The position numbers were made by a program, and so were the translations under genes. A stretch of DNA of 64,000 nucleotides, taken from positions 186,001 through 250,000 of the forward strand of contig NZ_CP042305.1 in assembly GCF_007859675.1 (NCBI RefSeq), written 5' to 3'. The notes beneath the pieces are model-generated. The model ran no database searches. It saw only the letters and a list, made by a program, of their open reading frames with translations, and was not told where the DNA came from. Of this stretch, positions 45,864 to 60,124 are shown one piece after another. The DNA is from Humibacter ginsenosidimutans (lineage in GTDB: Bacteria > Actinomycetota > Actinomycetes > Actinomycetales > Microbacteriaceae). The first letter of the stretch is position 1, and each line of letters begins with the position of its first letter.

Positions 45864-45885
45864 ATTGGTCGGGTACGCTGAAGCC

Positions 45886-46431
45886 GTGCCGTCGAACGCC
45901 CTCGCGAACCCGCTCGTGCTGCCGATACTCGGTCTGCTCGTCGAGCAGCCACGCCATCCCTACGCCGTGTTCTCGGAACTTCGCGCGCGCTACGACTTCC
46001 TGAAGGTGCGCAACGCGACCGTCTACACGCTGCTGAACACGCTCACTCGCGCAGGCTGGATCATCGAGTCCCCGCAGCAGGACTCCCCGGTGCTCTCCAC
46101 GACCGTCGCAGGGCGTGAGGCGCTCGCGGAGCGGGTCACGGTCGGACTGAGAGGCGGCGCACTCTCCGCGGACGCCGAATTCATGACGGCGCTCGCCTAT
46201 GTGGGCATCCTGGCCCCGAAGGATGCTGTGGCAGCGCTCCAGGATCGTCGTGATCGCCTGCGCGACGAACTCGCTCGGATCCGCCGTGTGCTCGATGACT
46301 CGCCGGCACTGGAGCTGCACATGATCGAGGTGCACTACTACCACGACAGGCTTCGCCACGACCTCGCATGGATCGAGCGCACCATCACACGGATGGGCGA
46401 CGGCAGCCTCGCGTGGCCCCGTCGGGGCTGA
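45886..46431 (+). CDS. PadR family regulator, divergent from the glycoside hydrolase
   Basis: 181 residues from GTG 45886. PadR winged helix: LPILGLLVEQPRHPYAVFSEL and NATVYTLLNTLTRAGWI. The C-terminal helices (LQDRRDRLRDELARIRRVL and HYYHDRLRHDLAWIERTI) form the PadR dimer domain. It is divergent from the enzyme gene and preceded by two palindromes. Confidence 0.85.
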   Translation: MPSNALANPLVLPILGLLVEQPRHPYAVFSELRARYDFLKVRNATVYTLLNTLTRAGWIIESPQQDSPVLSTTVAGREALAERVTVGLRGGALSADAEFMTALAYVGILAPKDAVAALQDRRDRLRDELARIRRVLDDSPALELHMIEVHYYHDRLRHDLAWIERTITRMGDGSLAWPRRG

Positions 46432-48008: not shown

Positions 48009-49484
48009 ATGTCGAACACGCGGGCCGAGGCTGCCTACCTGCGCTCCCTCGCCGCGTTCCGCACTCCCACGCTCGACCTGCTGCACGGACGGTACGCGCC
48101 GTTCGTCGTCGCCGTGTTGTCCATCGTGTTCACGGTCGATCGGCCGACGGTTGCGGTGTCGGATGCCCATGCCGAGATCGCAGAGATCATCGACGAGCTG
48201 CGCGCGGCCGGCTACGACGAGGACGACCGTTCGCTGCCGTCGGGCAGCGCGCGCGAGATCTGCCGCTACTGGGTGCGGGTCGGCTGGCTCGTGCCGCAGA
48301 TCGACGGCGACGTCGAGGTGTACCGGCTCACCGCGCATGCGGTGGGCGCGCTGGAGATCACCGGCCGCACCGGCGGCGGACGCACGCGGGTGTCGAACTC
48401 GCGGGTGCGCACGTTGCTGGAAGCGGTAGAACGGCTCGCGGCCGACGCGGAGACCGATCCCGAGCTGAGATTGCAGCGGCTGGTCGAGGAGCGCGCGGCG
48501 CTGGACCGTGAGATCGCGAGACTGTCGACGAGTGGCGAATCCGCACCGGTCGACGACGAGGTGCTGCTCGAGGAGGCGGAGAACATCCTGCACCTCGCAC
48601 GAGAGCTTCCGGCGGACTTCGCCCGCGTCGCCGAGTCGATCAAGGCCATGCAGCGCGACGTCGTCGCGGACCTGCGGCGCGACGTGCGCCCCACGGGTGA
48701 GGTGCTGCGCGAGTATCTCGAACGCGGCCAGCACGTGATGCAGGCCACCGCGGAAGGCCGCGCGTTCGCCGGTGCCCTGCGGCTGATCGGTGATCCGGAG
48801 CGCATCGACGACCTCACCGACCAGCTGCACACCGTGCTCGCACAACCGTTCGCCCGGCTGATGGACGCACAGCAGCGCGGCGAGCTCGACGCCATCGGGC
48901 GTCGCGTGGAGCTGGGGGTGCAGGAGGTGCTGACGGCGCAGCGCAGGGCATCCCACGTCATCACCGGCCAGGTGCGCACCCACGACCCTGTGCGCGACAG
49001 ACAGGTCGACGAACTGCTGCGCGACGTGATGGCCGGTCTGCAGAGCTGGACGCAGAGCTCCTCGCCGGATGCCCCTGTCGACCCTGTGCGCAGCCTCCCG
49101 GCCGCCACCGTGGGCCACCTGCGGCAGTCGGTGAGCGACATCCGCCCGCCCGGCGCCCCTGCGCCGTTGACCGTGCCCGACGCCGACGCGGAGCTGCTCG
49201 ATGCCGACACCCGCGCCTGGGGCGGCCCTCGCTACGCCGAGTTGGAGGCCTACGTCTCCCAGCTCGGCGACGAGTTCGACCTGGCCACCGCGTTCGAGGG
49301 CGCGGACGACGACACGCGCCGGCCCGTGGACCTGCTCGGACTGCTCGAGATCGCGCACCGTAACGGCATGAGCGAGAGCGACACGGTCTCGACGGTGGAG
49401 ACACTGCGCCCCGACGGCACGACGCGCCGATTCGCGTTCGGCGCGGTCACGGTACGCGGCACGAAGGAGAACGACGATGACTGA
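48009..49484 (+). CDS. jetA: JetA/MksF kleisin (DUF3375) of an SMC-like complex
   Basis: 491 residues from ATG 48009, DUF3375 across most of its length. N-terminal winged-helix region ([21 protein letters not shown]), then helices with [24 protein letters not shown] in the middle and a C-terminal part [18 protein letters not shown]. In Wadjet/MksBEF systems this is the kleisin that bridges the ATPase heads. It overlaps jetB by 8 bases and starts the three-gene unit. Confidence 0.9.
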
Positions 49485-50280
49485 GGCTGCGGCGATCGAC
49501 GAGGCTCTCGAAGAAGACGAGGCTCTCGAAGAAGACGTCGAGGTGGAGACGCTGAACGCCGAACCGTCCGACCGGCAGAGCGACCCCTTCATCGCGCCCG
49601 TCGCGATGGAAGACGACCTCGGCGAGCTGTTCCCCGGCGACCGCGGCGTGCTCGACCCCGAAGTGCGGCGCGTGCTCGTGCACGTGGTGCAGCGTCGCTT
49701 TCTGCTCGCCGAGCGCGGACGCGACGAGTGGAAGGTGCTGCTCGAGAATCAGCAGCTCATCGAGTCGCGACTGAACGATCTTTTCGTGCGTCTCGTGATC
49801 GACCACGATCGCGGCGTCGCCTACAAGCAGCAGGTGCGCAGCGACGATGTCGATGTGCCGATTCTGCTGCGCGACGCGCCTTACTCGCGTGCCGAGACGC
49901 TCGTGCTCGTGCACCTGCGCACGGTGTATCAACGGGAATCGGCCGCGGGCGAGACCTCGGCCCGTGTCGACATCGAGGACGTCGAGCAGACCGTGCTGAG
50001 CTACTTCGCCGACGCCGACGGCGACACCGCGCGCAGGCAGCGCATGATCCGCTCGGCGATGGCTCGCTTGGCCAAAGACGGCATCGTCGACGAGGAGACG
50101 GCGGGGCGCTTCCGCATCAGCGCGCTCGTGGAGATCGTGCTCAGCGCCCAGAAGCTGCGCGAGCTTCGCGACTGGCTGCGTGCGCAGCCCGCGGTCTCGC
50201 TCGACGAGTCCGCAGCGGATGAGACAGCACTCGACGAGGCAACACCGGAGGAGTCAACACTGGAAGAGGCAGTCCTGTGA
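49477..50280 (+). CDS. jetB: JetB/MksE KITE subunit (DUF4194)
   Basis: 267 residues. An acidic N-terminus precedes the DUF4194 domain (about 45-240) with [38 protein letters not shown] and [13 protein letters not shown]. The C-terminal tail is again acidic (DE/AT repeats). The N-terminal segment contains an exact 18-base tandem repeat. It overlaps jetC by 4 bases. Confidence 0.88.
49501..49536 (+). repeat. 18-base in-frame tandem duplication in jetB
   Basis: GAGGCTCTCGAAGAAGAC occurs twice, back to back (49501-49518 and 49519-49536), coding EALEED twice in the acidic N-terminal tail. Confidence 0.9.
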
Positions 50281-53200
50281 CCATGCTCGACACCCTGTTC
50301 GGGCTCATCCCGGCGGCGTCCCGCGGCCAGCAGTGGCTCGCCGAAGACCTTCAGCTCGTGAACTGGGGCGGCTACGACGGCGCGCACCGGGTGCGCTTCT
50401 CGCCGGGTGCGACGCTGTTGTGCGGCGGATCCGGGTCGGGCAAGTCCACGCTGATGGATGCCTACATCGCGCTCATGATGCCGCACACGACTCCCTTCAA
50501 CGGAGCCTCCAATGGCGGGGTGACCGGGCGTCCGCGCGGCGAAGACCAGCGCAACATCCTCTCCTACGCCCGCGGCAAGCTCGACGAGTCCCGCACCGAG
50601 GACGGCACGAAGATGCGCGTGTTGCGCGGTGACGGCGAGGACACGTGGACGGCGGTCGCGATGACGTGGCTCGACCACGACGGGTCGAGGTTCACTGCGG
50701 TGCGTGCCTGGTACATCCCGGCCGGCGCGCGAGTGCTCGAAGACACCGTGCGCGTGCGTGCGACCGCCGACGACACCTTCGACCTGGCGTCGCTCGAAGC
50801 CGCGGCACCGCAGCGGTTCACCGACACGTCGCTGCGGGCCGTGGGACTCGACCCGGTGGGCACCGACCGCGAGTTCTCGGCTCGACTCCACGCCGTGCTC
50901 GGAATCGGCGCGGCGGGGGCGGGGGCCAAGGCGATGAGCCTGCTCGCGCGCATCCAGGCCGGCCAGCAGATCACGACGGTCGACGACCTGTACAAGCGTC
51001 TGGTGCTCGAGGAGCCCGAGACGATGCTCACCGCCGACGCCGTCGTCGCGCACTTCGACGAACTGGAGAGCACAAGGCAACGGATGCTCACGGCCAGGCA
51101 GCAGGTGAACGCGCTGGAGCCCATTCGCGAGCTGCGCGCGAAGATCGCCGACGCCGCCGAACGTGCCCGCGTGGTCGACGAGATCGGCGGGTTCGGCGAT
51201 CCCGACTCGCTGGCGTCACTGTGGCGGGCGAACAGGCGCCTCGACCTGTTGCGCGAGGTGGAGACCGAGCTCGGCGCACGCAAGCACGAGGTCGACGTGG
51301 CTCTGCGTGAGAAGCGGGCGCTGGCGGATGCCGCGGAGTCGGAACGCGACGGCCTCGCCGACCTGCTGCGCCAGTCGGGCGGCGACCGGCTGGAGACCGC
51401 GCAGCGCGAACTTCGGCAGATCGAGACCAAGCTGACCGCCGTGCAGGAGAACCGCGCGCGACTCGACGACGACCTCGCCGCCGCGGACACCACGGTGTCG
51501 ACGCGCGACCAGTTCGAGGCCCTCGTGGCGCGGGCGCGGGCGGCGCTGGCGGACGGCGACACGAAGCGCGGCGCGCGAGCCGACTTCGCGACCGCCATGT
51601 CGGCGCAGAAGGCTGCGGCGGCCGAGGTCGCGAACCTCGAGAAGGAACGCGAACGAGTCGAGGGCGGACGGGGCAACGTGCCCTCGCACTTCGCCGACGC
51701 GCGCGATCTTCTGGCGCGTGCCGCGGGCATCCAGCCAGAGGAGCTGCCGTTCGTCGCCGAGCTCGTCGAGGTGCGCACCGAGTTCGAGCCCTGGCGCGAG
51801 GCGTTCAACCTCGCACTCGGCGGATTCGCGACGACGCTGCTCATCGATGTGGCCAGGATCGACGACTTCCGCGCTGCGATCGACAGCGTGCGCACCCCGG
51901 TGCGGCTGCGCTACGAAGGCGTGCACACGGGTCTGGATGCCTCGGGCTCCCTCGATACCCGCACCCTCCCCGGCCGACTCGACTACCTGCCGTCCCCGTT
52001 CGCCGGGTGGCTGCAGGAGCGGCTCGACAAGCGCTTCGGCTTCGTCTGCGTCGACTCGCCGGCCGAGCTCGCCCGGCACCGGGACGCCCTCACCATCACG
52101 GGTCAGCTGTCGCAGGGGAGCGCTGGAGCGCACGGCGGACACGGCCGCGACAACGTGCTCGGCTTCTCCAACGAGCACAGGCTGCGCGACCTCGACACCC
52201 GGTTGGCAGCGGCCCGCGCCCGGTTCGCGGATGCCGAGCAAGCGGCTTTTGCGGCGGAGACCCGGCTCGACGAGCTGGAGACCCGACGTGCCCTCTACAC
52301 GAAGGTCGTCGACCTCACCTGGGATCAGGTCGACCTCGACACCGTCACCGCTGAGCGGGACAGGTGGACGGCCGTGCACGACGAGGTCGTTGCCGGCAAT
52401 CCCGAGATCGCGCGCATCCAGGCGCAGATCGCCGAGGTCAAGGCGCGTTCCGCCGGCTTCCAGCGCGACATCGGCCGGCTGGAATCCGAACGCGAGAGCG
52501 TCGAGAACCAGTGGGCGGGGGTCACCGACGACGTCGATGCGAGCCAGGGCGTGGTGGACGAGGCCGAGGAGCAGGAACGCGGGCTCGCCGACGACCAGCT
52601 GGCGTACCTCGACGCTCGGTTCACGCTGGGGGAGAAGGCGGCGGCGGGGCGGGCATCCACGGTGCTCGCGCGCTTCGACGCTGCGCTGGCGGATGCAGGC
52701 CATCGCCTCGACGAGGACCGTCGCGTCGCGCTGCAGGCCCACCTCGAACACCGCGAGTCGTTGCGCCGCATCATGACCGGCTTCCTCGACCGTTGGCCGA
52801 ACCCCAACCTGCTGCCCGACCCGGATGTATCGTTCACCGACTTCGAGCGCATTCTCGAGGCGCTGGAGACGAGCGGTCTGCACGAGCTCGAGTCCGAGTG
52901 GCGGGACAGCCTGCTGGGGCTCTCGGGCAACGATCTCACCAACCTGGACTCGACGCTCAGCAGGTCGTTGCGCGAGATCCGTGAGCGCATCGAGCCGATC
53001 AACAGCATCATGCAGGACCTGCCGTTCTACGACGACGACCACCGGCTGCAGATCACCACACGGGAGAACCAGTCGGAGGCGCGCAAGCGCTTCCGTCGTG
53101 ACCTGCGCGAGGTGCGTGCGCTGATCGAGGCGGCGTCCACCGACGACGACCGCGAGCAGGCGTACCGCCGCATGACCAGGCTGATCGCGAGGATGCGCCG

Positions 53201-53636
53201 CTCGGCGCCCGACTTCGGCGACCTCATCGACGTGCGCAACCACGTGCGCGTCAGCGCCGAGCGGGTCGACGCGGCGACGCGTACGCACGTGGCGTTGTAC
53301 GACCACATCGGCGAGAAGTCGGGCGGCGAGTCGCAGGAGCTGATCGCGTTCATCGTGGGCGCAGCGCTGCGGTACCAGCTCGGGGACGCCGGCGCAGAGC
53401 GGCCGCGCTACGCGCCGGTCTTCATGGACGAGGCGCTCATCAAGGCCGACGCGCACTTCACCAAGCGCGCGATCGGCGCGTGGCGCGGCCTCGGATTCCA
53501 GCTCGTCATCGGCGCGCCGAACGACAAGTACAGCGCCATCGAGCCGCACGTCGACGTCGAGTACGACATTCTCAAGGACACGAAGGGGCGCTCCTGGGCG
53601 AAGCCCAAGGTGGGGCTGCAAGACGACGCCGCGTGA
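50277..53636 (+). CDS. jetC: JetC/MksB SMC-like ATPase
   Basis: 1119 residues. Walker [10 protein letters not shown] near residue 50, long coiled coils on both sides of a central hinge, the signature KSGGESQEL near 1013 and Walker [12 protein letters not shown] near 1048, followed by [18 protein letters not shown]. It is the motor of a Wadjet/MksBEF-type condensin. Wadjet extrudes plasmid DNA loops and JetD cuts it; here no jetD follows. After its stop the next genes are on the opposite strand and unrelated. Confidence 0.92.
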
Positions 53637-53684: not shown

Positions 53685-54140
53685 TCAGCTCGCCCGCGCA
53701 GCGAACGTGAGGTCGTCGACCTGCTGATACTCGTGGTACTGGAGGGCGCCGAGCGTGAGTGCGCCGTCCGACGTGAGGCGCACCTCGGTTCCCGCCCAGA
53801 CTCCCGGCTGCGTCTCCGTGGCCTTCATGGTCGCGATCGTCCAACGCTCCAGCGGCAGGTCGGGCAGCTCGACGTCGAACGACAGCGCGGGCGCAGGGGA
53901 CAGGGCGATCCAGGGCGACGACAGCGAGGCATCCATCAGTCCGTGGTGACCGAACCAGTGCACCCGTCCGCCGTAGCGCAGGATGCCGTCGGCGCCGACC
54001 TCGACGAACGGGAACCGGAAGGTTCCTTCCGCACTGAGCTCGGCATCCTCCGACACCTCGATCGTGCCGTCGTCGAGCATGCGCACGTACCTCATGAGGC
54101 TCTGCTTGACGCCCCAGTCGAGCGCGTGCGAGGCGGTCAT
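53685..54140 (-). CDS. HtaA-domain protein
   Basis: 151 residues from ATG 54140, a single HtaA domain: ALDWGVKQSLMRYVR, then a GTFRFPFVEVG strand and GRVHWFGHHGLMDASLSSPWI. In Corynebacterium HtaA domains bind heme via Tyr and His; both residue types are present here (YVR and VHWFGHHG), but this copy has no signal peptide or anchor, so it is cytoplasmic. It is coupled to the PadR gene by an ATGA overlap and lies beside a P450 cluster. Heme binding here is inference. Confidence 0.8.
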   Translation of the reverse strand: MTASHALDWGVKQSLMRYVRMLDDGTIEVSEDAELSAEGTFRFPFVEVGADGILRYGGRVHWFGHHGLMDASLSSPWIALSPAPALSFDVELPDLPLERWTIATMKATETQPGVWAGTEVRLTSDGALTLGALQYHEYQQVDDLTFAARAS

Positions 54141-54751
54141 GAGTCGGAGTGGTCGGCCGGCGCCTCGGAGAACGCCTTGAGCGCATCGAGGCGCTCGAGC
54201 GACTCCGTCGCCCACGCGATCTCGAGCTCCGCCCGCTGCACGTCGCCGCTGTAGGCGAGGTCGCGGAGGAGCAGGGTCACCACCTGCTCGGCGCCCTCCT
54301 TGGACTGGATGCGTTGCAGAACGCGCGGGTTCTCGCCGGTGAGCACGCGCTCGCGCATCTCGATGACGCGTTCGCGGCGCTGGGTGAAGTGCTCGCGGTG
54401 GGCCTCGAGGTGGCTGCGGATCGCCTCGATGCCGTTGTTGTCCGAGAACAGCAGCTGGAGGCGTTCGGGATCGCGGTTCGGCCGGTATTGCGGCTTGTCG
54501 GCGGTCCAGCCACGCAGATCCTCCGCGCCTGCGTCGGTGAGCGAGTAGACCCGCTTCTCGAGCCGTTCCCCGACCGTCGTCGCGGTGCCGGAGATGAGGC
54601 CGGCCGTCTCGAGTCGCCGCAATTCGGGATAGATCTGGCTGTGCGAGGCAGCCCAGAACCAGCCGAGACCGCCGTCGAGCTGCTGGACCAGGTCGTAGCC
54701 GGATCCGGTGCCCGAACTCAAATAGCCCAAGATCGCGTATTTCAGGGACAT
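54137..54751 (-). CDS. PadR family regulator of the P450/monooxygenase cluster
   Basis: 204 residues. PadR winged helix: LKYAILGYLSSGTGSGYDLVQQL and SHSQIYPELRRLETAGLISG, and a long C-terminal helical ligand/dimer domain (HLEAHREHFTQRRERVIEMRERVL). An ACATGT-N5-TTGACAT element lies 24-45 bases upstream, and close copies lie in front of the FAH/monooxygenase divergon and the P450 gene, so it is the likely regulator of the cluster. Confidence 0.88.
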   Translation of the reverse strand: MSLKYAILGYLSSGTGSGYDLVQQLDGGLGWFWAASHSQIYPELRRLETAGLISGTATTVGERLEKRVYSLTDAGAEDLRGWTADKPQYRPNRDPERLQLLFSDNNGIEAIRSHLEAHREHFTQRRERVIEMRERVLTGENPRVLQRIQSKEGAEQVVTLLLRDLAYSGDVQRAELEIAWATESLERLDALKAFSEAPADHSDS

Positions 54752-54774: not shown

Positions 54775-54796
54775 GACATGTACACGTTGACATGTC
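54775..54796. promoter_or_regulatory. Cluster operator A upstream of padR-htaA
   Basis: Contains ACATGT-ACACG-TTGACAT followed by GTC. The same arrangement (GACATGT-N5-TTGACAT) recurs at 56227 and, slightly changed, at 60105. It lies just outside the PadR start, consistent with autoregulation. Confidence 0.65.
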
Positions 54797-54827
54797 GGGG
54801 AGTGTCGAAGGTCGCCGTGCGTCGGCG

Positions 54828-55286
54828 TCATGCGATCGGGTCGGTGTCGATCAGCACGAAGAGCACTTTGCAGGGCTTGCCCGACTCGTTGCGCCAGCCG
54901 TGATTGGTTCCCCGCTGCACCAGCACGTCTCCGGCGGAGAGCACGCGCTCCTCGTCGTCGAGCACGGCGACGATGGTTCCGTCGATGATGTAGCAGTAGT
55001 CGAGCGACGGAGTTCGGTGCATGTGGATCTGCTCGCCCGGCTCGCGCGGCGCAAAGTCGACGATTCGGAACACCGAGCCGCCTGCGGGCGGCGGGAACTG
55101 CGTCTCGCCGAGAATCGAGTCGACGAAGTCCGCAGCGTTCTCTGCTCGGTCTGCCGCCTTCCAGAGCTCGTACACGGGTCCGCCGTCCGGCGCCTCCCAG
55201 ACGTTCGGCGTCGGACCATCGGCGACGAAGACCGCGGTTCCGTTCTCGTCGTGCCCGGTGACCAGGCGTCGTTGCTCAGCGGTCAT
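54828..55286 (-). CDS. Cupin-domain protein
   Basis: 152 residues from ATG 55286 with GAGGAG upstream. A single cupin barrel: metal-type motif QIHMHRTPSLDYCYII (H-x-H ... D), later GTNHGWRNESGKPC. The family often accompanies aromatic catabolism genes, but enzyme activity is not established; it may be a dioxygenase or isomerase. It overlaps the FAH gene by 4 bases and shares its unit. Confidence 0.82.
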   Translation of the reverse strand: MTAEQRRLVTGHDENGTAVFVADGPTPNVWEAPDGGPVYELWKAADRAENAADFVDSILGETQFPPPAGGSVFRIVDFAPREPGEQIHMHRTPSLDYCYIIDGTIVAVLDDEERVLSAGDVLVQRGTNHGWRNESGKPCKVLFVLIDTDPIA

Positions 55287-56197
55287 GACAGGTTCTCCTC
55301 GGTGATCGTGGGGTGGTAGGCCCGGAATCCGCCGGAGGCGGGCGCCGGAGCGGCTTCGACGGGGTTGCTCAGGGTTCCGATCCCGTCGATCTCGACCTCG
55401 ACGACATCGCCGTCCATCATGAAGACGGGCGGAGTGCGTCGGAGCCCCACGCCGCCGGAGGTGCCGGTGACGATGACGTCGCCGACCTCGAGCGTCGAGA
55501 CCGTCGAGACGTAGTGGATCAGGTACTCGATGGGGAACAGGAGCTGGTCGACGGTCGTGTCCTGCATGACCTCGCCGTTGAGGCGGGTGGTGATGCGGTG
55601 CGACGTCGGGTCGCCGAACTCGTCGGGGGTGACGAGCCATGGACCGAAGCCGCCGGTCGCGTCGAAGTTCTTGCCCATCGTGATCTGGGTCGTGTGGCGC
55701 TGCCAGTCGCGTACCGAGCCGTCGTTGTAGCACGCGTAGCCGGCCACGTGGCCGAGAGCCTCGTCCATCGGGATGTCGCGACCGCGCGTTCCGATCACCA
55801 CGGCGAGCTCGCCCTCGTAGTCGAGCTGCGACGAGACGTCGGGGAGCCGCATCGGCTCCCCGTGCCCGAGCTGGCTGTTCGCGACCCGCAGGAAGAACAG
55901 CGGATAGTCGGGCACCGGGCGCCCCGCACCTTCCCGCACGTGGCTGAGGTACGTCAGCGCGGCGCACCAGATGCCCTGTGGATTCGGCACCACCGGGAGG
56001 TAGCGGACGGCATCGAGCGGAATCACGGCCGAGGCGTCGGCAGCGTCAGCGTTGAACTCCTTGCCGGGGAGCCACTCCAGCGCGGCGCGCATCGAGGTCG
56101 GCGCATTCTCGGCGAGCGCGCCGAGTGGAACGATGCCGTCGGCCCGAACGATGCCGACGTCATCGACACCGTCGTGCTGGAAAGAAGCGATCTTCAT
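55283..56197 (-). CDS. Fumarylacetoacetate hydrolase family protein
   Basis: 304 residues from ATG 56197. The C-terminal FAH fold has the metal-binding DYEGELAVVIG near residue 122 (E-x-E), GYACYNDGSVRDWQRHTTQ and IVTGTSGGVGLRR. The family cleaves C-C bonds or isomerises products of ring cleavage. With the divergent flavin monooxygenases it probably forms a catabolic route. Operator B lies 30 bases upstream. Confidence 0.9.
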   Translation of the reverse strand: MKIASFQHDGVDDVGIVRADGIVPLGALAENAPTSMRAALEWLPGKEFNADAADASAVIPLDAVRYLPVVPNPQGIWCAALTYLSHVREGAGRPVPDYPLFFLRVANSQLGHGEPMRLPDVSSQLDYEGELAVVIGTRGRDIPMDEALGHVAGYACYNDGSVRDWQRHTTQITMGKNFDATGGFGPWLVTPDEFGDPTSHRITTRLNGEVMQDTTVDQLLFPIEYLIHYVSTVSTLEVGDVIVTGTSGGVGLRRTPPVFMMDGDVVEVEIDGIGTLSNPVEAAPAPASGGFRAYHPTITEENLS

Positions 56198-56226
56198 TGA
56201 GCCTCCTAGGGCGACACGTTCATAAC

Positions 56227-56247
56227 GACATGTCAATCTTGACATAG
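56227..56247. promoter_or_regulatory. Cluster operator B in the FAH/monooxygenase divergon
   Basis: GACATGT-CAATC-TTGACATAG; it contains the inverted repeat TGTCAA-TC-TTGACA. It matches operator A at the outer 13 positions and lies between the divergent FAH and flavin monooxygenase genes. Confidence 0.7.
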
Positions 56248-56348
56248 ATCGCGGCGACTCCGATACTGATCGTGACGGGACGTTCTCGCGGACTCGATGA
56301 CGAGCACCTCGAGCACCGACTCCGTACACACTCGACGAGGGAGACGAA

Positions 56349-57602
56349 GTGGTCACCACCAAACCCGGACGCGTCGGCATCATCGGCAGCGGGCCCGCCG
56401 GCATGGCTGCGGCGATGTCGGTGCTCCAGGCCGGACATCAGCCGACGGTCTTCGAGCGGTATCCGGCGACGGAGCCTCGGGGCAACATCCTCAACCTGTG
56501 GCCGCCGCCCATCGAGGCGCTCGAGCTGCTCGGCGTCGATGTCGAGGACATCGGTGCTCCGTGCCAGACGATCTTCCGCAACAACAAGGGCCGCACGCGT
56601 GCGACCATCCACATCTCCGACGAGCTGCAGCAGAAGTACGGCGGCGACTTCATCGGCCTGCTCCGTCCGGATCTCTACAAGCGCATGTACGACTCGGTCC
56701 CCGAGGGAATCATCGAGCCGAACCTGGCCGTGCAGAGCTTCACGCAGAACGACGACGGCGTGCAGGTCGTGCTGTCCGACGGCACGACACGCGACTTCGA
56801 CGTGCTCGTCGGGGCCGACGGCATCCACTCCGTCGTGCGCAAGACGCTCTGGGGCGACCAGCCGATTCGCGAACACAACCTGCACATCTTCGGCGGCTAC
56901 ACGATGAAGCCGTTCCCCGACGTGCAGCGAGGCCAGGTCGTGATCTCGTGGTCGAAGGACAAGCAGGGCAGCTACACGTCCATTCGCAGTCACGGTGACA
57001 GCGGCTTCGAATGGTGGACGATCGAGGCGCACCCGAAGAACACCGAGTTCACCGGCGACTTCCACGCGACCGCAACGCGCATCGCCTCCGAGTTCCCCTC
57101 TCCTCTGCCGGAGCTGGTGGCCGCGACAGACCCGAAGGACATGCACCGCTGGGTGCTGCGCGACCGCAAGGCACTGGAGAAGTGGTCGAGCGGCCGCGCC
57201 GTCATCATCGGTGACGCGGCGCACGCGACATCGCCGTACGCGGGATACGGGGCGGGCATGGCGATCGAAGACGGATACTTTTTCGGGCGCGCGCTCGCCG
57301 GCGTCGACCTGTCGAACCTCGCCGAGGTGCGGTCGGCGCTCGAGGGCTTCGAGGGCCCGCGCATCACGCACACGGCGAGTCTCGCCCAGCGCGCCTACAT
57401 GCTCAGCCAGGTGATGCATCACGCACCGAAGCCGTTGCGTCCGCTGCGCGACCTCGTCATGGATCACACCGGTCTGCTGCAGAAGGTGGCCGCGGACGGA
57501 ACGCCGGGGGAGATCATGGCCCAGGTCGACATCATCCGCGACACCGAGAAGCGGTTCCAGGCCCGGATGAGCTCGGCATCGAACGACGAGAAGGTCGCCT
57601 GA
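56349..57602 (+). CDS. FAD-dependent monooxygenase 1
   Basis: 417 residues from GTG 56349 with GAGGGAG upstream. Group A flavin hydroxylase: GxGxxG in IIGSGPAGMAAAM near residue 13, the DG motif LVGADGIHSVVRK near 156 and the GD motif IIGDAAHATSPYAGYG near 287. Such enzymes hydroxylate aromatic rings with NAD(P)H and O2. The substrate is not known. It ends 2 bases before the second monooxygenase. Confidence 0.9.
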   Translation: MVTTKPGRVGIIGSGPAGMAAAMSVLQAGHQPTVFERYPATEPRGNILNLWPPPIEALELLGVDVEDIGAPCQTIFRNNKGRTRATIHISDELQQKYGGDFIGLLRPDLYKRMYDSVPEGIIEPNLAVQSFTQNDDGVQVVLSDGTTRDFDVLVGADGIHSVVRKTLWGDQPIREHNLHIFGGYTMKPFPDVQRGQVVISWSKDKQGSYTSIRSHGDSGFEWWTIEAHPKNTEFTGDFHATATRIASEFPSPLPELVAATDPKDMHRWVLRDRKALEKWSSGRAVIIGDAAHATSPYAGYGAGMAIEDGYFFGRALAGVDLSNLAEVRSALEGFEGPRITHTASLAQRAYMLSQVMHHAPKPLRPLRDLVMDHTGLLQKVAADGTPGEIMAQVDIIRDTEKRFQARMSSASNDEKVA

Positions 57603-57604
57603 GC

Positions 57605-58720
57605 ATGGCCGCATTGAACATCGCCGTCGTCGGCGGAGGCATCGCGGGTCTGACCGCGGCCACGGCTCTGAGCCGGCAGGGGCACAGAGTCGAGGTGCTC
57701 GAACGGCAGAGCGAGTGGCCGGCGGTCGGATGGGGTCTCACCCTCACCGGTCCCGCGCTGCGCGCCCTGCGATCGATCGGGCTGGATCAGGCGTGCATCG
57801 CCGTCGGCTACCCGATCGACTCGATCAACAACTGCGACGTGCGCGGAGTCACCTTCCATACGGTGGAGCCGCCGTCTCTGCTGGGACCGGGCGAGCCGGT
57901 GATGGTCGGCATCGGCCGGCCGGCACTGTCTCGCGTTCTGCGTGAGGCGGCACAGAACGCGGGTGCCACGCTGACGCTCGGCGCGAAGGTCGTGTCGATC
58001 GACGACGAGGGCGACAGTGCGACTCTCGTGCTCGACGACGGAACGCGCAAGACCGTCGATCTGGTCGTCGCCGGCGACGGCGTGCACTCCGCGGCGCGCA
58101 CCGCGATCGGCATCGACGAGGAGCCCCGTTTTCTCGGCCAGGCGGTCTGGCGCACCACGGTGCAGCGGCCCTCGTCGATCGACCGGCTCACGACGTTTAA
58201 CGGCCAGGAGCACTCGTCGGGCATCATCCCGATCTCCGAGCACGACGCCTACGTGTTCACGACGCAGATCGTCGACGATCGTTCGGCAGACGCCGATGTC
58301 GACCTGGCCGCTGACCTGCGGGAGCTGCTGTCACCTCTCGAAGGGGAGATGGCCGCGCTTCGTGACGGCATCGTCGACTCCGAGCGCGTCGTGCGACGTC
58401 CGGTCATGGCGATCATCGTCGAGGAGCCCTGGTACCGCGGCCGAACGGTGCTCATCGGCGACGCCGCACACACCTGTGCCCCCGGAATGGTCAGCGGGGC
58501 GGCGTTGGCGATCGAGGATGCCGTGACTCTCGCCGATGAGCTCGGCGCGCGCGAGTCCGTGGCCGGCGCGCTCGACGCGTTCTTCCGTCGCCGGCTCGAT
58601 CGGGCCCGTCTCGTCGTCGAGGCGTCGGAAGAGATGACGAAGGCCGAGTTCGAGCATCGCTACGCCGAAGAGCACGAGATTCAAGACCGCGCCTTCGCCG
58701 CCCTGGCGGCTCCGGCATGA
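57605..58720 (+). CDS. FAD-dependent monooxygenase 2
   Basis: 371 residues. GGGIAGLTAATAL at the N-terminus, DG motif VAGDGVHSAARTA near 158 and GD motif LIGDAAHTCAPGMVSGAALAI near 285. It is shorter than the first and not a recent duplicate. Its stop overlaps the ferredoxin start (ATGA), so it may be made together with the P450 redox chain. Confidence 0.9.
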   Translation: MAALNIAVVGGGIAGLTAATALSRQGHRVEVLERQSEWPAVGWGLTLTGPALRALRSIGLDQACIAVGYPIDSINNCDVRGVTFHTVEPPSLLGPGEPVMVGIGRPALSRVLREAAQNAGATLTLGAKVVSIDDEGDSATLVLDDGTRKTVDLVVAGDGVHSAARTAIGIDEEPRFLGQAVWRTTVQRPSSIDRLTTFNGQEHSSGIIPISEHDAYVFTTQIVDDRSADADVDLAADLRELLSPLEGEMAALRDGIVDSERVVRRPVMAIIVEEPWYRGRTVLIGDAAHTCAPGMVSGAALAIEDAVTLADELGARESVAGALDAFFRRRLDRARLVVEASEEMTKAEFEHRYAEEHEIQDRAFAALAAPA

Positions 58721-58935
58721 CGACCATCGGGAGCAGGACCATGCAGATCGACATCAACCTTTCGAAGTGCGAGGGCCACGGGCTGTGCGAGCAGCTGGCG
58801 CCGCAGGTGTTCGGACTCGATGACGAGGGATACGTGTTCCTCAAAGTGGATCAGCCCATCCCGGCCGAGCTCGAAGAGGCGGCTGCCGCCGGCGCGCGGG
58901 TCTGTCCGGTCGCAGCGCTGCGAGTGCTCCGATGA
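58717..58935 (+). CDS. P450-type ferredoxin
   Basis: 72 residues; an internal ATG at 58744 is a possible shorter start. Three cluster cysteines are in CEGHGLC and RVCPVAAL; with only three ligands a [3Fe-4S] cluster (or [4Fe-4S] with a non-Cys ligand) is expected, as in ferredoxins serving actinobacterial P450s. It overlaps the reductase gene by 4 bases. Confidence 0.9.
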   Translation: MTTIGSRTMQIDINLSKCEGHGLCEQLAPQVFGLDDEGYVFLKVDQPIPAELEEAAAAGARVCPVAALRVLR

Positions 58936-60065
58936 CACTCGACCACATCGTTGTCGCAGGCGGCTCGATCGCCGCCGTGACAGCGGCCGGAGCGCTGCGA
59001 ACGGCCGGCTTCGGCGGGCGTGTCACGCTCGTCAGCGCCGAACGGGCGGCACCGTATTCGCGCGTGCCGCTCTCCAAGGGCGTCATGATCGGCACGGAGA
59101 CGCCGGAATCGGCAGCACTGCCCGCGCTGCCCGACGACGTCGAGCTCATGCTCGGCACTGCCGCAGCCGGGCTGCGAGTCGATCGGCGCGAGCTGATCCT
59201 CGCCGGCGGCGGGGTCGTGGACTACGACGGGCTCGTGATCGCGACCGGTGCTCGTGCGCGTCGTCTCGCCGCACCGGGACAACGGGGCGAGCTCGTCGTT
59301 CGCACCCTCGCCGATGCGGAGGCGATCGCCGAACGTCGAGCGGATGCGTCGAGCGCGGTGGTCGTCGGCGGCGGGTTCCTCGGTATGGAGGTGGCCTCGA
59401 CGCTGCGTCACCACGGTCTCGAGGTCACCGTCGTCGACATGGAGCCCCCGCTTCGACGGCTGCTCGGACCGTGGCTCGCGGAGTACGTCACGAAGGCGGC
59501 GCTGGAGCACGGTGTGCGCCTGGTCATCTCGGAGGGCGGCGTCGTGCTGGAAGGCGACCCGATCTCGGGTGTTCGCCTGGGCAATGGCGAGTTCATCGCC
59601 GGCGACCTCGTGGTGTCGGCGGTGGGCGACATCCCCAATGCCGAGTGGCTCGAAGGCTCCGGACTGCGCCTGGCCAACGGCGTCGTCGTCGACGAGCGAT
59701 GCCGCGTGGCACCGGCCATCACCGGCGCCGGGGACGTCGTCTCCCGCGAGGTGTCGCCCGGCGTCTTTCGCAGAACGCCGCACTGGAGCAACGCCGTCGC
59801 TCAGGGCCGGGCCGCCGCGACGAGCCTGCTCGACGATGGCGCCTCGCCGTACGTCCCCGATCACTACTTCTGGACGGAGCAGTACGGACTCGACGTGAAG
59901 ATCGCCGGCGAGCCGCCCCTTGTCGGCGAGCCGGATGTGCTCGCGGGCGATCTGGACGGCCGGGAGGTCCTGCTGCGCTGGTCGAACACCGACGATGCGA
60001 CCACGGCCGTCGTTTCGATCAACTACCGGATGCCGGCAGCCCGCCTCCGGAAGATGGTCGCCTAG
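58932..60065 (+). CDS. Ferredoxin reductase (NAD(P)H, FAD)
   Basis: 377 residues. FAD motif VVAGGSIAAVTAAGALR at the N-terminus, active-site PYSRVPLSKGVM, second Rossmann motif VVVGGGFLGMEVAS near residue 140, and GAGDV near 270. The first motif is GGSIAA rather than the usual GxGxxG, as in several P450-linked reductases. It passes electrons to the ferredoxin encoded just before it. Confidence 0.88.
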   Translation: MTLDHIVVAGGSIAAVTAAGALRTAGFGGRVTLVSAERAAPYSRVPLSKGVMIGTETPESAALPALPDDVELMLGTAAAGLRVDRRELILAGGGVVDYDGLVIATGARARRLAAPGQRGELVVRTLADAEAIAERRADASSAVVVGGGFLGMEVASTLRHHGLEVTVVDMEPPLRRLLGPWLAEYVTKAALEHGVRLVISEGGVVLEGDPISGVRLGNGEFIAGDLVVSAVGDIPNAEWLEGSGLRLANGVVVDERCRVAPAITGAGDVVSREVSPGVFRRTPHWSNAVAQGRAAATSLLDDGASPYVPDHYFWTEQYGLDVKIAGEPPLVGEPDVLAGDLDGREVLLRWSNTDDATTAVVSINYRMPAARLRKMVA

Positions 60066-60102
60066 CACCTTCCAGCGCGGCGATCCATCGACACGCAACT
60101 TC

Positions 60103-60124
60103 AAACATGTAACTATGTACATAA
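60103..60124. promoter_or_regulatory. Cluster operator C upstream of the P450 gene
   Basis: Contains ACATGT-AACTA-TGTACAT (60105-60122), the same spacing as operators A and B with TGTACAT instead of TTGACAT. It lies about 60 bases upstream of the P450 start in an AT-rich promoter-like stretch. Confidence 0.55.

What the first reader, a model, noticed from the sequence alone, without database searches (positions are those of the whole stretch)
54775..60124. Shared PadR-type operator before three transcription units of a P450/monooxygenase cluster
GACATGT-N5-TTGACAT occurs at 54775 and 56227, and ACATGT-N5-TGTACAT at 60105. These sit before padR-htaA, in the FAH/monooxygenase divergon, and before the P450 gene. 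The units together encode two flavin monooxygenases, a P450 with its own ferredoxin and reductase, an FAH-family enzyme and a cupin: a plausible, undescribed oxidative degradation pathway.
Basis: partly seen in the sequence, partly recalled or inferred. Interest (0 to 1): 0.75.

Follow-up and report, generated by a model that had tools for sequence, protein, structure and literature searches.

The report
PadR-controlled aromatic catabolism regulon, two loci
Three copies of a known type of repressor-binding site stand before a cluster of oxygen-using enzymes, and a fourth copy 2.9 million bases away stands before the ring-cutting genes that the cluster lacks, so together they look like one scattered pathway for breaking down a plant-type phenolic compound.

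Summary
The three sites exist as described and fit the published PadR operator ATGT-N8-ACAT. The genome has 27 such 16-mers; three lie in this 5.35 kb (Poisson P about 7e-6, post hoc). A stricter form, ACATGT-N5-TNN-ACAT, occurs at six places.

The operator tracks this PadR. Leucobacter sulfamidivorax (PadR 75% identical) has two exact strict sites in its genome, both between padR and the flavin monooxygenase MO1. A Microbacterium-like genome (70%) has two, both between FAH and padR. Leucobacter's padR site lies 34.5 bp from the start codon, as here, and its other site overlaps the -35 box of the same TTGACA-N17-GATACT promoter.

A fourth site lies 2.89 Mb away before an extradiol dioxygenase operon; orthologues of that dioxygenase and of a C-C hydrolase sit inside the single Leucobacter cluster. 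So the window holds half of a split, probably PadR-repressed, meta-cleavage pathway.

The substrate is unproven; parallels with the isoflavone ifc pathway, and C-glycoside-cleaving genes in 11 of 80 MO1-homologue loci, suggest plant polyphenols. The P450 is CYP199-like without its carboxylate-binding residues; HtaA looks intracellular with heme ligands kept. Gene content varies among relatives. New variant of a known kind.

The parts
54776..54795 (.). Operator W1, ACATGT-N8-ACATGT, before padR-htaA
   Evidence: exact; same 34.5-bp distance to the padR start in Leucobacter
56214..56245 (.). Operator W2 in the FAH/MO1 divergon, with a degenerate upstream box at 56214-56219
   Evidence: overlaps the MO1 promoter
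56239..56267 (+). MO1 promoter TTGACA-N17-GATACT; its -35 box is the right half of W2
   Evidence: same hexamers and spacing in Leucobacter
60105..60122 (.). Operator W3 before the P450 gene
   Evidence: no counterpart seen before the Leucobacter P450; no promoter found by the scan there
53685..54140 (-). HtaA-domain protein, 151 aa, no evident signal peptide
   Evidence: Pfam PF04213; hemin-contact residues kept in 3 of 3 orthologues
54137..54751 (-). PadR regulator, 204 aa, the presumed binder of W1-W3
   Evidence: Pfam PF03551 and PF10400; closest solved sequences 6lg2 and 5z7b
54828..55286 (-). Small cupin, 152 aa
   Evidence: Pfam PF07883; 68% identical in G970
55283..56197 (-). FAH-family enzyme, 304 aa
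   Evidence: Pfam PF01557; 60% identical in G970
56349..57602 (+). MO1, FAD-dependent monooxygenase, 417 aa, GTG start
   Evidence: Pfam PF01494; closest solved 6-hydroxynicotinate 3-monooxygenase; 81% in Leucobacter
57605..58720 (+). MO2, FAD-dependent monooxygenase, 371 aa
   Evidence: Pfam PF01494; 66% in Leucobacter
58717..58935 (+). Single-cluster ferredoxin, 72 aa
   Evidence: Pfam PF13459
58932..60065 (+). Ferredoxin reductase, 377 aa
   Evidence: Pfam PF07992
60162..61373 (+). Cytochrome P450, CYP199-like (start 60162 or 60183)
   Evidence: 40.9% identity to CYP199 9g9q over 394 residues
61416..61718 (+). 100-aa protein, predicted eight-stranded barrel
   Evidence: no Pfam match; 76% in Leucobacter; model pLDDT 90

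Best explanation
The PadR protein at 54137-54751 represses its own gene and a regulon for oxygen-dependent breakdown of an aromatic, probably plant-derived polyphenolic or aryl-ketone compound. A PadR dimer binds ATGT-N8-ACAT over the core promoter (overlap seen in sequence at MO1, inferred elsewhere), and a pathway compound releases it (inferred from the family; ligand unknown). The regulon has two places in this chromosome: the window cluster (FAH, cupin, padR, htaA; MO1, MO2, ferredoxin, reductase; P450 and a barrel protein), and an operon 2.89 Mb away with an extradiol dioxygenase, a beta-keto-acid cleavage enzyme, a second VOC dioxygenase, an MhpA-like hydroxylase, an Ayg1/DHPON-hydrolase-like C-C hydrolase and an MFS transporter. 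Inferred order: P450 and flavin monooxygenases hydroxylate the ring, an extradiol dioxygenase cuts it, the C-C hydrolase, FAH protein and cupin process the product, and the beta-keto-acid cleavage enzyme feeds CoA metabolism. Shown: the sites, their conservation, the gene families, and the linkage of the two loci's core genes in Leucobacter. Inferred: binding, repression, order of steps, substrate. Taken apart: a real PadR regulon about 0.9, repression 0.75, a plant-polyphenol substrate about 0.45.
For: Published consensus with an 8-nt spacer. Six strict places in this genome against 43 strand matches in 248 other family genomes, at most two per genome. The only two exact sites of the Leucobacter genome and of G970 lie in padR intergenic regions. 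Conserved 34.5-bp distance and TTGACA-N17-GATACT promoter. The distant site precedes a dioxygenase gene whose orthologue (84%), with that of the hydrolase (75%), lies in the Leucobacter cluster. G970 has FAH, beta-keto-acid cleavage enzyme, VOC2 and MhpA-like genes in a row behind the operator. Enzyme classes parallel ifc; C-glycoside-cleaving genes in 11 of 80 MO1-homologue loci.
Against: No binding data. Two exact strict sites of this genome (80984, 3253173) have no link to the regulon. W3 has no counterpart before the Leucobacter P450. The promoter scan finds nothing at W3 or before the dioxygenase, so overlap is seen only at MO1. FAH and cupin are absent from the Leucobacter locus, MO1 and MO2 from the part of the G970 contig read (first 10 kb not read); G970's best match to the dioxygenase is 36%, on another contig. 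No GMC homologue in the three genomes (no positive control). The strict pattern was written after seeing the window and Leucobacter sites.
Confidence: 0.7

Rival explanations
1. The operator is real but serves another of the genome's PadR proteins, or several share it, so the apparent regulon is a crosstalk network.
For: 16 PadR-domain matches in the genome, 14 over the Pfam cut-off, a second one in this window at 45865-46431; ATGT-N8-ACAT is common to the family.
Against: In three genomes the exact strict sites cluster at the gene of this PadR orthologue, and same-family genomes rarely have them.
Confidence: 0.08
2. PadR is an activator here, or acts both ways, and not a simple repressor.
For: The C-terminal domain is named after virulence activators (PF10400); AphA, an activator, is among the solved relatives.
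Against: The operator overlaps the -35 box of the MO1 promoter in two genomes.
Confidence: 0.15
3. The regulation is real but the cluster detoxifies or modifies varied aromatics and is not one ordered pathway; gene content is a mosaic.
For: FAH, cupin, MO1, MO2 and P450 come and go among relatives.
Against: Ring-cleaving dioxygenase and C-C hydrolase travel with the monooxygenases in Leucobacter and share the operator here.
Confidence: 0.2
4. The sites are chance, or only -35 boxes.
For: W1, W2 and the distant site contain TTGACAT, a -35 hexamer.
Against: The ACATGT half is conserved too; W3 and both G970 sites lack TTGACA on the strand shown; chance P is 7e-6 to 7e-8 for the window and about 6e-11 for Leucobacter (pattern partly fitted to these sites).
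Confidence: 0.02

Closest known systems
PadR-family regulators with ATGT-N8-ACAT operators
   Same: PadR and C-terminal domains; the same inverted repeat with an 8-nt spacer (passages of PMC5050560 and PMC3506622); autoregulatory position.
   Different: The target genes; a second locus 2.89 Mb away under the same site. The closest solved PadR sequences, 6lg2 and 5z7b, are recalled as VanR of Corynebacterium glutamicum, whose operator I recall as different.
Isoflavone catabolism cluster ifc of Variovorax (and fde of Herbaspirillum)
   Same: Flavin monooxygenase, glyoxalase-type dioxygenase, DHPON-hydrolase-like protein and small cupins as classes (PMC11069340, Results read).
   Different: Here a P450 with ferredoxin and reductase, FAH, beta-keto-acid cleavage enzyme, HtaA, PadR control and an actinobacterial host. 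No direct sequence comparison with Ifc/Fde proteins was made. The ifc hydrolase mutant still degraded daidzein.
C-glycoside catabolism (CarA/CarBC, PurA/PurBC)
   Same: GMC oxidase plus sugar isomerase and/or DUF6379 genes accompany MO1 homologues in 11 of 80 loci, one of them Microbacterium trichothecenolyticum (L064), a species with a tested deglycosidase MtCGD (PMC8563793 passages).
   Different: No GMC homologue found in this genome (no positive control); at most the aglycone-handling part is shared.
CYP199A P450s
   Same: 40.9% and 37.3% identity to CYP199 9g9q and CYP199A2 2fr7.
   Different: The residues aligned with the benzoate-carboxylate contacts are Ala85, Gly88 and Gly237; the partner ferredoxin is a 4Fe-4S/3Fe-4S single-cluster type, while the CYP199A ferredoxins are recalled as 2Fe-2S.

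Membership tests
PadR regulator | PadR winged-helix domain | tested here: met
   PF03551, 54.4 bits, cut-off 27
PadR regulator | ATGT-N8-ACAT operator at its own gene | tested here: met
   W1; same in Leucobacter and G970
PadR regulator | binding to the operator, release by a ligand | not testable with these tools
   needs a gel shift
CYP199 P450 | about 40% identity to CYP199 members (usual family rule, recalled) | tested here: inconclusive
   40.9% and 37.3%, at the border
CYP199 P450 | carboxylate-binding Arg92, Ser95, Ser244 of CYP199A4 | tested here: not met
   aligned positions of 2fr7 (R94, S97, S247; equivalence to CYP199A4 numbering inferred) are Ala85, Gly88, Gly237 here (PMC11854964 passages)
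ifc/fde-type flavonoid pathway | monooxygenase, VOC dioxygenase, DHPON-hydrolase-like protein and cupin together | tested here: inconclusive
   all four classes in the regulon, but spread over two loci and not compared with Ifc/Fde sequences
ifc/fde-type flavonoid pathway | activity on flavonoids | not testable with these tools
   no assay
HtaA/CR-domain heme protein | Ser and axial Tyr four residues apart, helper His | tested here: met
   Ser14, Tyr18, His65 invariant in 3 of 3 orthologues; weak match to HtaA CR2 8smu, E 6.4e-05; PMC12494546 passages
HtaA/CR-domain heme protein | secreted or surface-displayed | tested here: inconclusive
   no hydrophobic N-terminal stretch seen by eye in 3 of 3 sequences; no signal-peptide program was run

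The most novel reading that the evidence does not exclude
A PadR regulon that holds a complete, undescribed polyphenol-degrading pathway together although its genes are scattered and reshuffled between genomes, and that includes two unusual helpers: an intracellular HtaA-type heme protein that loads or guards the P450, and a small avidin-like barrel that binds or isomerises a pathway intermediate.
Probability: 0.2. Interest if true: 0.7.

Novelty: new variant of a known kind. Interest (0 to 1): 0.5.

Why it matters
If true, one short DNA motif lets the scattered parts of an uncharacterised aromatic pathway be collected from genomes and metagenomes, including a ring-cleaving operon that gene neighbourhood alone would miss. 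It also gives a named regulator whose inducer can be found by a gel shift or reporter screen, which would identify the substrate. An intracellular HtaA protein tied to a P450 would be a new role for a family known from heme uptake.

Tried and rejected
Other ATGT-N8-ACAT sites as regulon members: 24 besides the three in the window. 18 lie inside genes by the crude gene caller. The pair at 2922869 and 2924572 flanks a LacI-type regulator gene (named by eye from its N-terminus) and is read as its operator. 3253173 recurs identically in G001 of the same genus, in which MO1 was not found. 80984 (between two genes, one of which looks by eye like a phosphate transporter) and 2552168 (between genes, not strict) stay unexplained. 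Only 3137170 was kept.

A tandem array of boxes every 14 bp: offset -14 averages 2.71 of 6 matches over 7 sites against a background of 1.45 (sd 0.59), and is good in only some sites; not claimed as general.

C-glycosides as the direct substrate: no GMC homologue at E 1e-20 in 3 genomes, without a positive control. PadR on plasmids: no match. VOC2 on plasmids: 3 records, all under 32%. P450 on plasmids: 30 records, all under 60%, not informative.

Literature: no paper describing this cluster among the listings of searches. The Leucobacter genome paper PMC6868719 has no occurrence of 'cytochrome P450', 'PadR' or 'catechol' in the main text. Most subscription journals are outside that library.
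Full report
OBSERVATION. The three sites are in the sequence as described. They share ATGT-N8-ACAT, which the literature gives as a conserved PadR binding motif (passages of PMC5050560, and PMC3506622). The 4.18-Mb genome has 27 such 16-mers. Three in 5,350 bp gives Poisson P = 6.7e-6, calculated after the fact.

GENES. Minus strand: FAH-family enzyme, cupin, PadR, HtaA. Plus strand: MO1, MO2, ferredoxin, ferredoxin reductase; then, after W3, a P450 and a 100-aa protein. Flanks: Wadjet jetABC on the left, a carboxylesterase and pntB on the right.

CROSS-GENOME TEST. An alignment of MO1 relatives found 117 loci in the 84,980-species collection, of which the tool keeps 80. One of the 80, Candidatus Leucobacter sulfamidivorax (L015), has MO1 81%, PadR 75%, HtaA 61%, ferredoxin 79%, reductase 75%, P450 80%, the 100-aa protein 76% and, about 9 kb on, MO2 66%. 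PadR, HtaA, ferredoxin and the 100-aa protein each reach E 1e-20 in 1 of 80 loci, P450 in 10, MO2 in 37, FAH in 39, cupin in 4. MO1 was found in 1 of 5 genomes of the window's genus, its own, and at E 1e-130 in 5 of 398 of the family, the other four at 51-56%. PadR at E 1e-40 was found in 1 of 396 genomes of the order, the window's own, and in 1 of 366 of genus g85, namely G970. That genus is taken to be Microbacterium because G970's contig length, 36,744, equals the one listed for the PadR of Microbacterium sp. CPCC 204701.

THE OPERATOR FOLLOWS PADR. After seeing the window and Leucobacter sites I wrote the strict form ACATGT-N5-TNN-ACAT. The G970 sites were not used in writing it; the 3137170 site was already in the list of 27 but had not been looked at. 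Exact sites per whole genome: window genome 6 places; Leucobacter 2, both between padR and MO1; G970 2, overlapping, both between FAH and padR. Of these 10 places, 8 lie at promoters of padR, MO1, FAH, P450 or the dioxygenase. Control: among 248 other genomes of the family 40 have a match, 43 strand matches in all, at most two per genome. The Leucobacter padR site is centred 34.5 bp from the start codon, exactly as W1. Before MO1 both genomes have TTGACA-N17-GATACT with the -35 box inside the operator; that geometry suggests a repressor. Against: the same scan finds no promoter at W3 or before the dioxygenase, and W3 has no counterpart before the Leucobacter P450.

THE MISSING HALF. The window cluster has no recognised ring-cleaving dioxygenase. 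The strict site at 3137170-3137187 lies about 50 bp before an extradiol dioxygenase gene at 3137235 (start codon chosen by likeness to Leucobacter), followed by a beta-keto-acid cleavage enzyme, a second VOC dioxygenase, an MhpA-like hydroxylase, a FrsA-family hydrolase and a transporter that looks like an MFS protein. The dioxygenase resembles catechol 2,3-dioxygenases (TIGR03211, 245 bits, under its cut-off of 320). The hydrolase is closest to Ayg1/Yg1 proteins and, more weakly, to 2,6-dihydroxypseudooxynicotine hydrolase among solved sequences. In Leucobacter the orthologues of this dioxygenase (84%) and hydrolase (75%) sit between the P450 and MO2 of the single cluster. In G970 the beta-keto-acid cleavage enzyme (76%), second VOC (66%) and MhpA-like (63%) genes run behind FAH from the operator-bearing region, but G970's best match to the dioxygenase is 36%, on another contig. 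Gene sets vary; the operator and PadR stay. This is the main evidence that the two loci are one regulon.

SUBSTRATE. Unproven. (i) The published isoflavone cluster ifc has a group A flavin monooxygenase, a glyoxalase-type dioxygenase, a DHPON-hydrolase-like protein and small cupins (PMC11069340, Results section read); its hydrolase mutant still degraded daidzein, so that gene's role there is open. No Ifc or Fde sequence was compared directly. (ii) Of 80 MO1-homologue loci 11 carry a GMC oxidase together with sugar-isomerase and/or DUF6379 genes like those of C-glycoside cleavage, among them Microbacterium trichothecenolyticum, a species with a tested deglycosidase (PMC8563793 passages; whether it is the same gene was not checked). 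Homologues of the dioxygenase lie near such genes on plasmids of Arthrobacter sp. StoSoilB13 (63%) and Deinococcus aetherius (60%). The Leucobacter locus itself is not among the 11. (iii) The P450 is CYP199-like but lacks the carboxylate-binding residues, against a simple benzoate. Against C-glycosides as such: no GMC homologue in three genomes (no positive control).

HELPERS. The HtaA protein keeps Ser14, Tyr18 and His65 in 3 of 3 orthologues, the positions that contact hemin in corynebacterial CR domains (PMC12494546 passages; correspondence from the alignment), with no signal peptide evident by eye; an intracellular heme role beside a P450 is an inference. The 100-aa protein is predicted as an eight-stranded barrel (pLDDT 90, 9 sequences) of avidin/calycin-like shape.

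VERDICT. The operator is real and the first interpretation partly right. The regulator family and enzyme classes are known; the composition, the two-locus layout and the helper proteins are new to the searches made here. New variant of a known kind.

Noticed in passing
48009-53636 (+): Wadjet jetA, jetB and jetC (PADLOC models) with no jetD reading frame before the catabolic cluster starts at 53685 on the other strand; jetD may be missing or displaced. Not searched for elsewhere.
   Followed up: partly
45865-46431 (+): A second PadR-domain gene in the same window (PF03551, 34.1 bits).
   Followed up: partly
L091 (G000:3130000-3144000), 1005-2156: A tyrosine phage-type integrase gene lies about 5 kb from the second regulon locus, which may mark a mobile origin.
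   Followed up: no
L090 (G000:2915000-2932000), 7870 and 9573: A pair of ATGTCA-N4-TGACAT palindromes flanks a LacI-type regulator gene, probably that regulator's own operators.
   Followed up: no
G000:80984-81001 (L093:2485): An exact strict operator between two genes, one of which looks like a phosphate transporter; not explained by the regulon.
   Followed up: partly
L119 (Deinococcus aetherius pDAETH-1, 354853-375848): Dioxygenase, cyclase, FAH, FrsA-like, two flavin monooxygenases and a P450 stand beside a GMC oxidase, sugar isomerase, DUF6379 and sugar ABC transporter genes: a candidate C-glycoside-to-ring-cleavage cluster outside Actinomycetota.
   Followed up: partly
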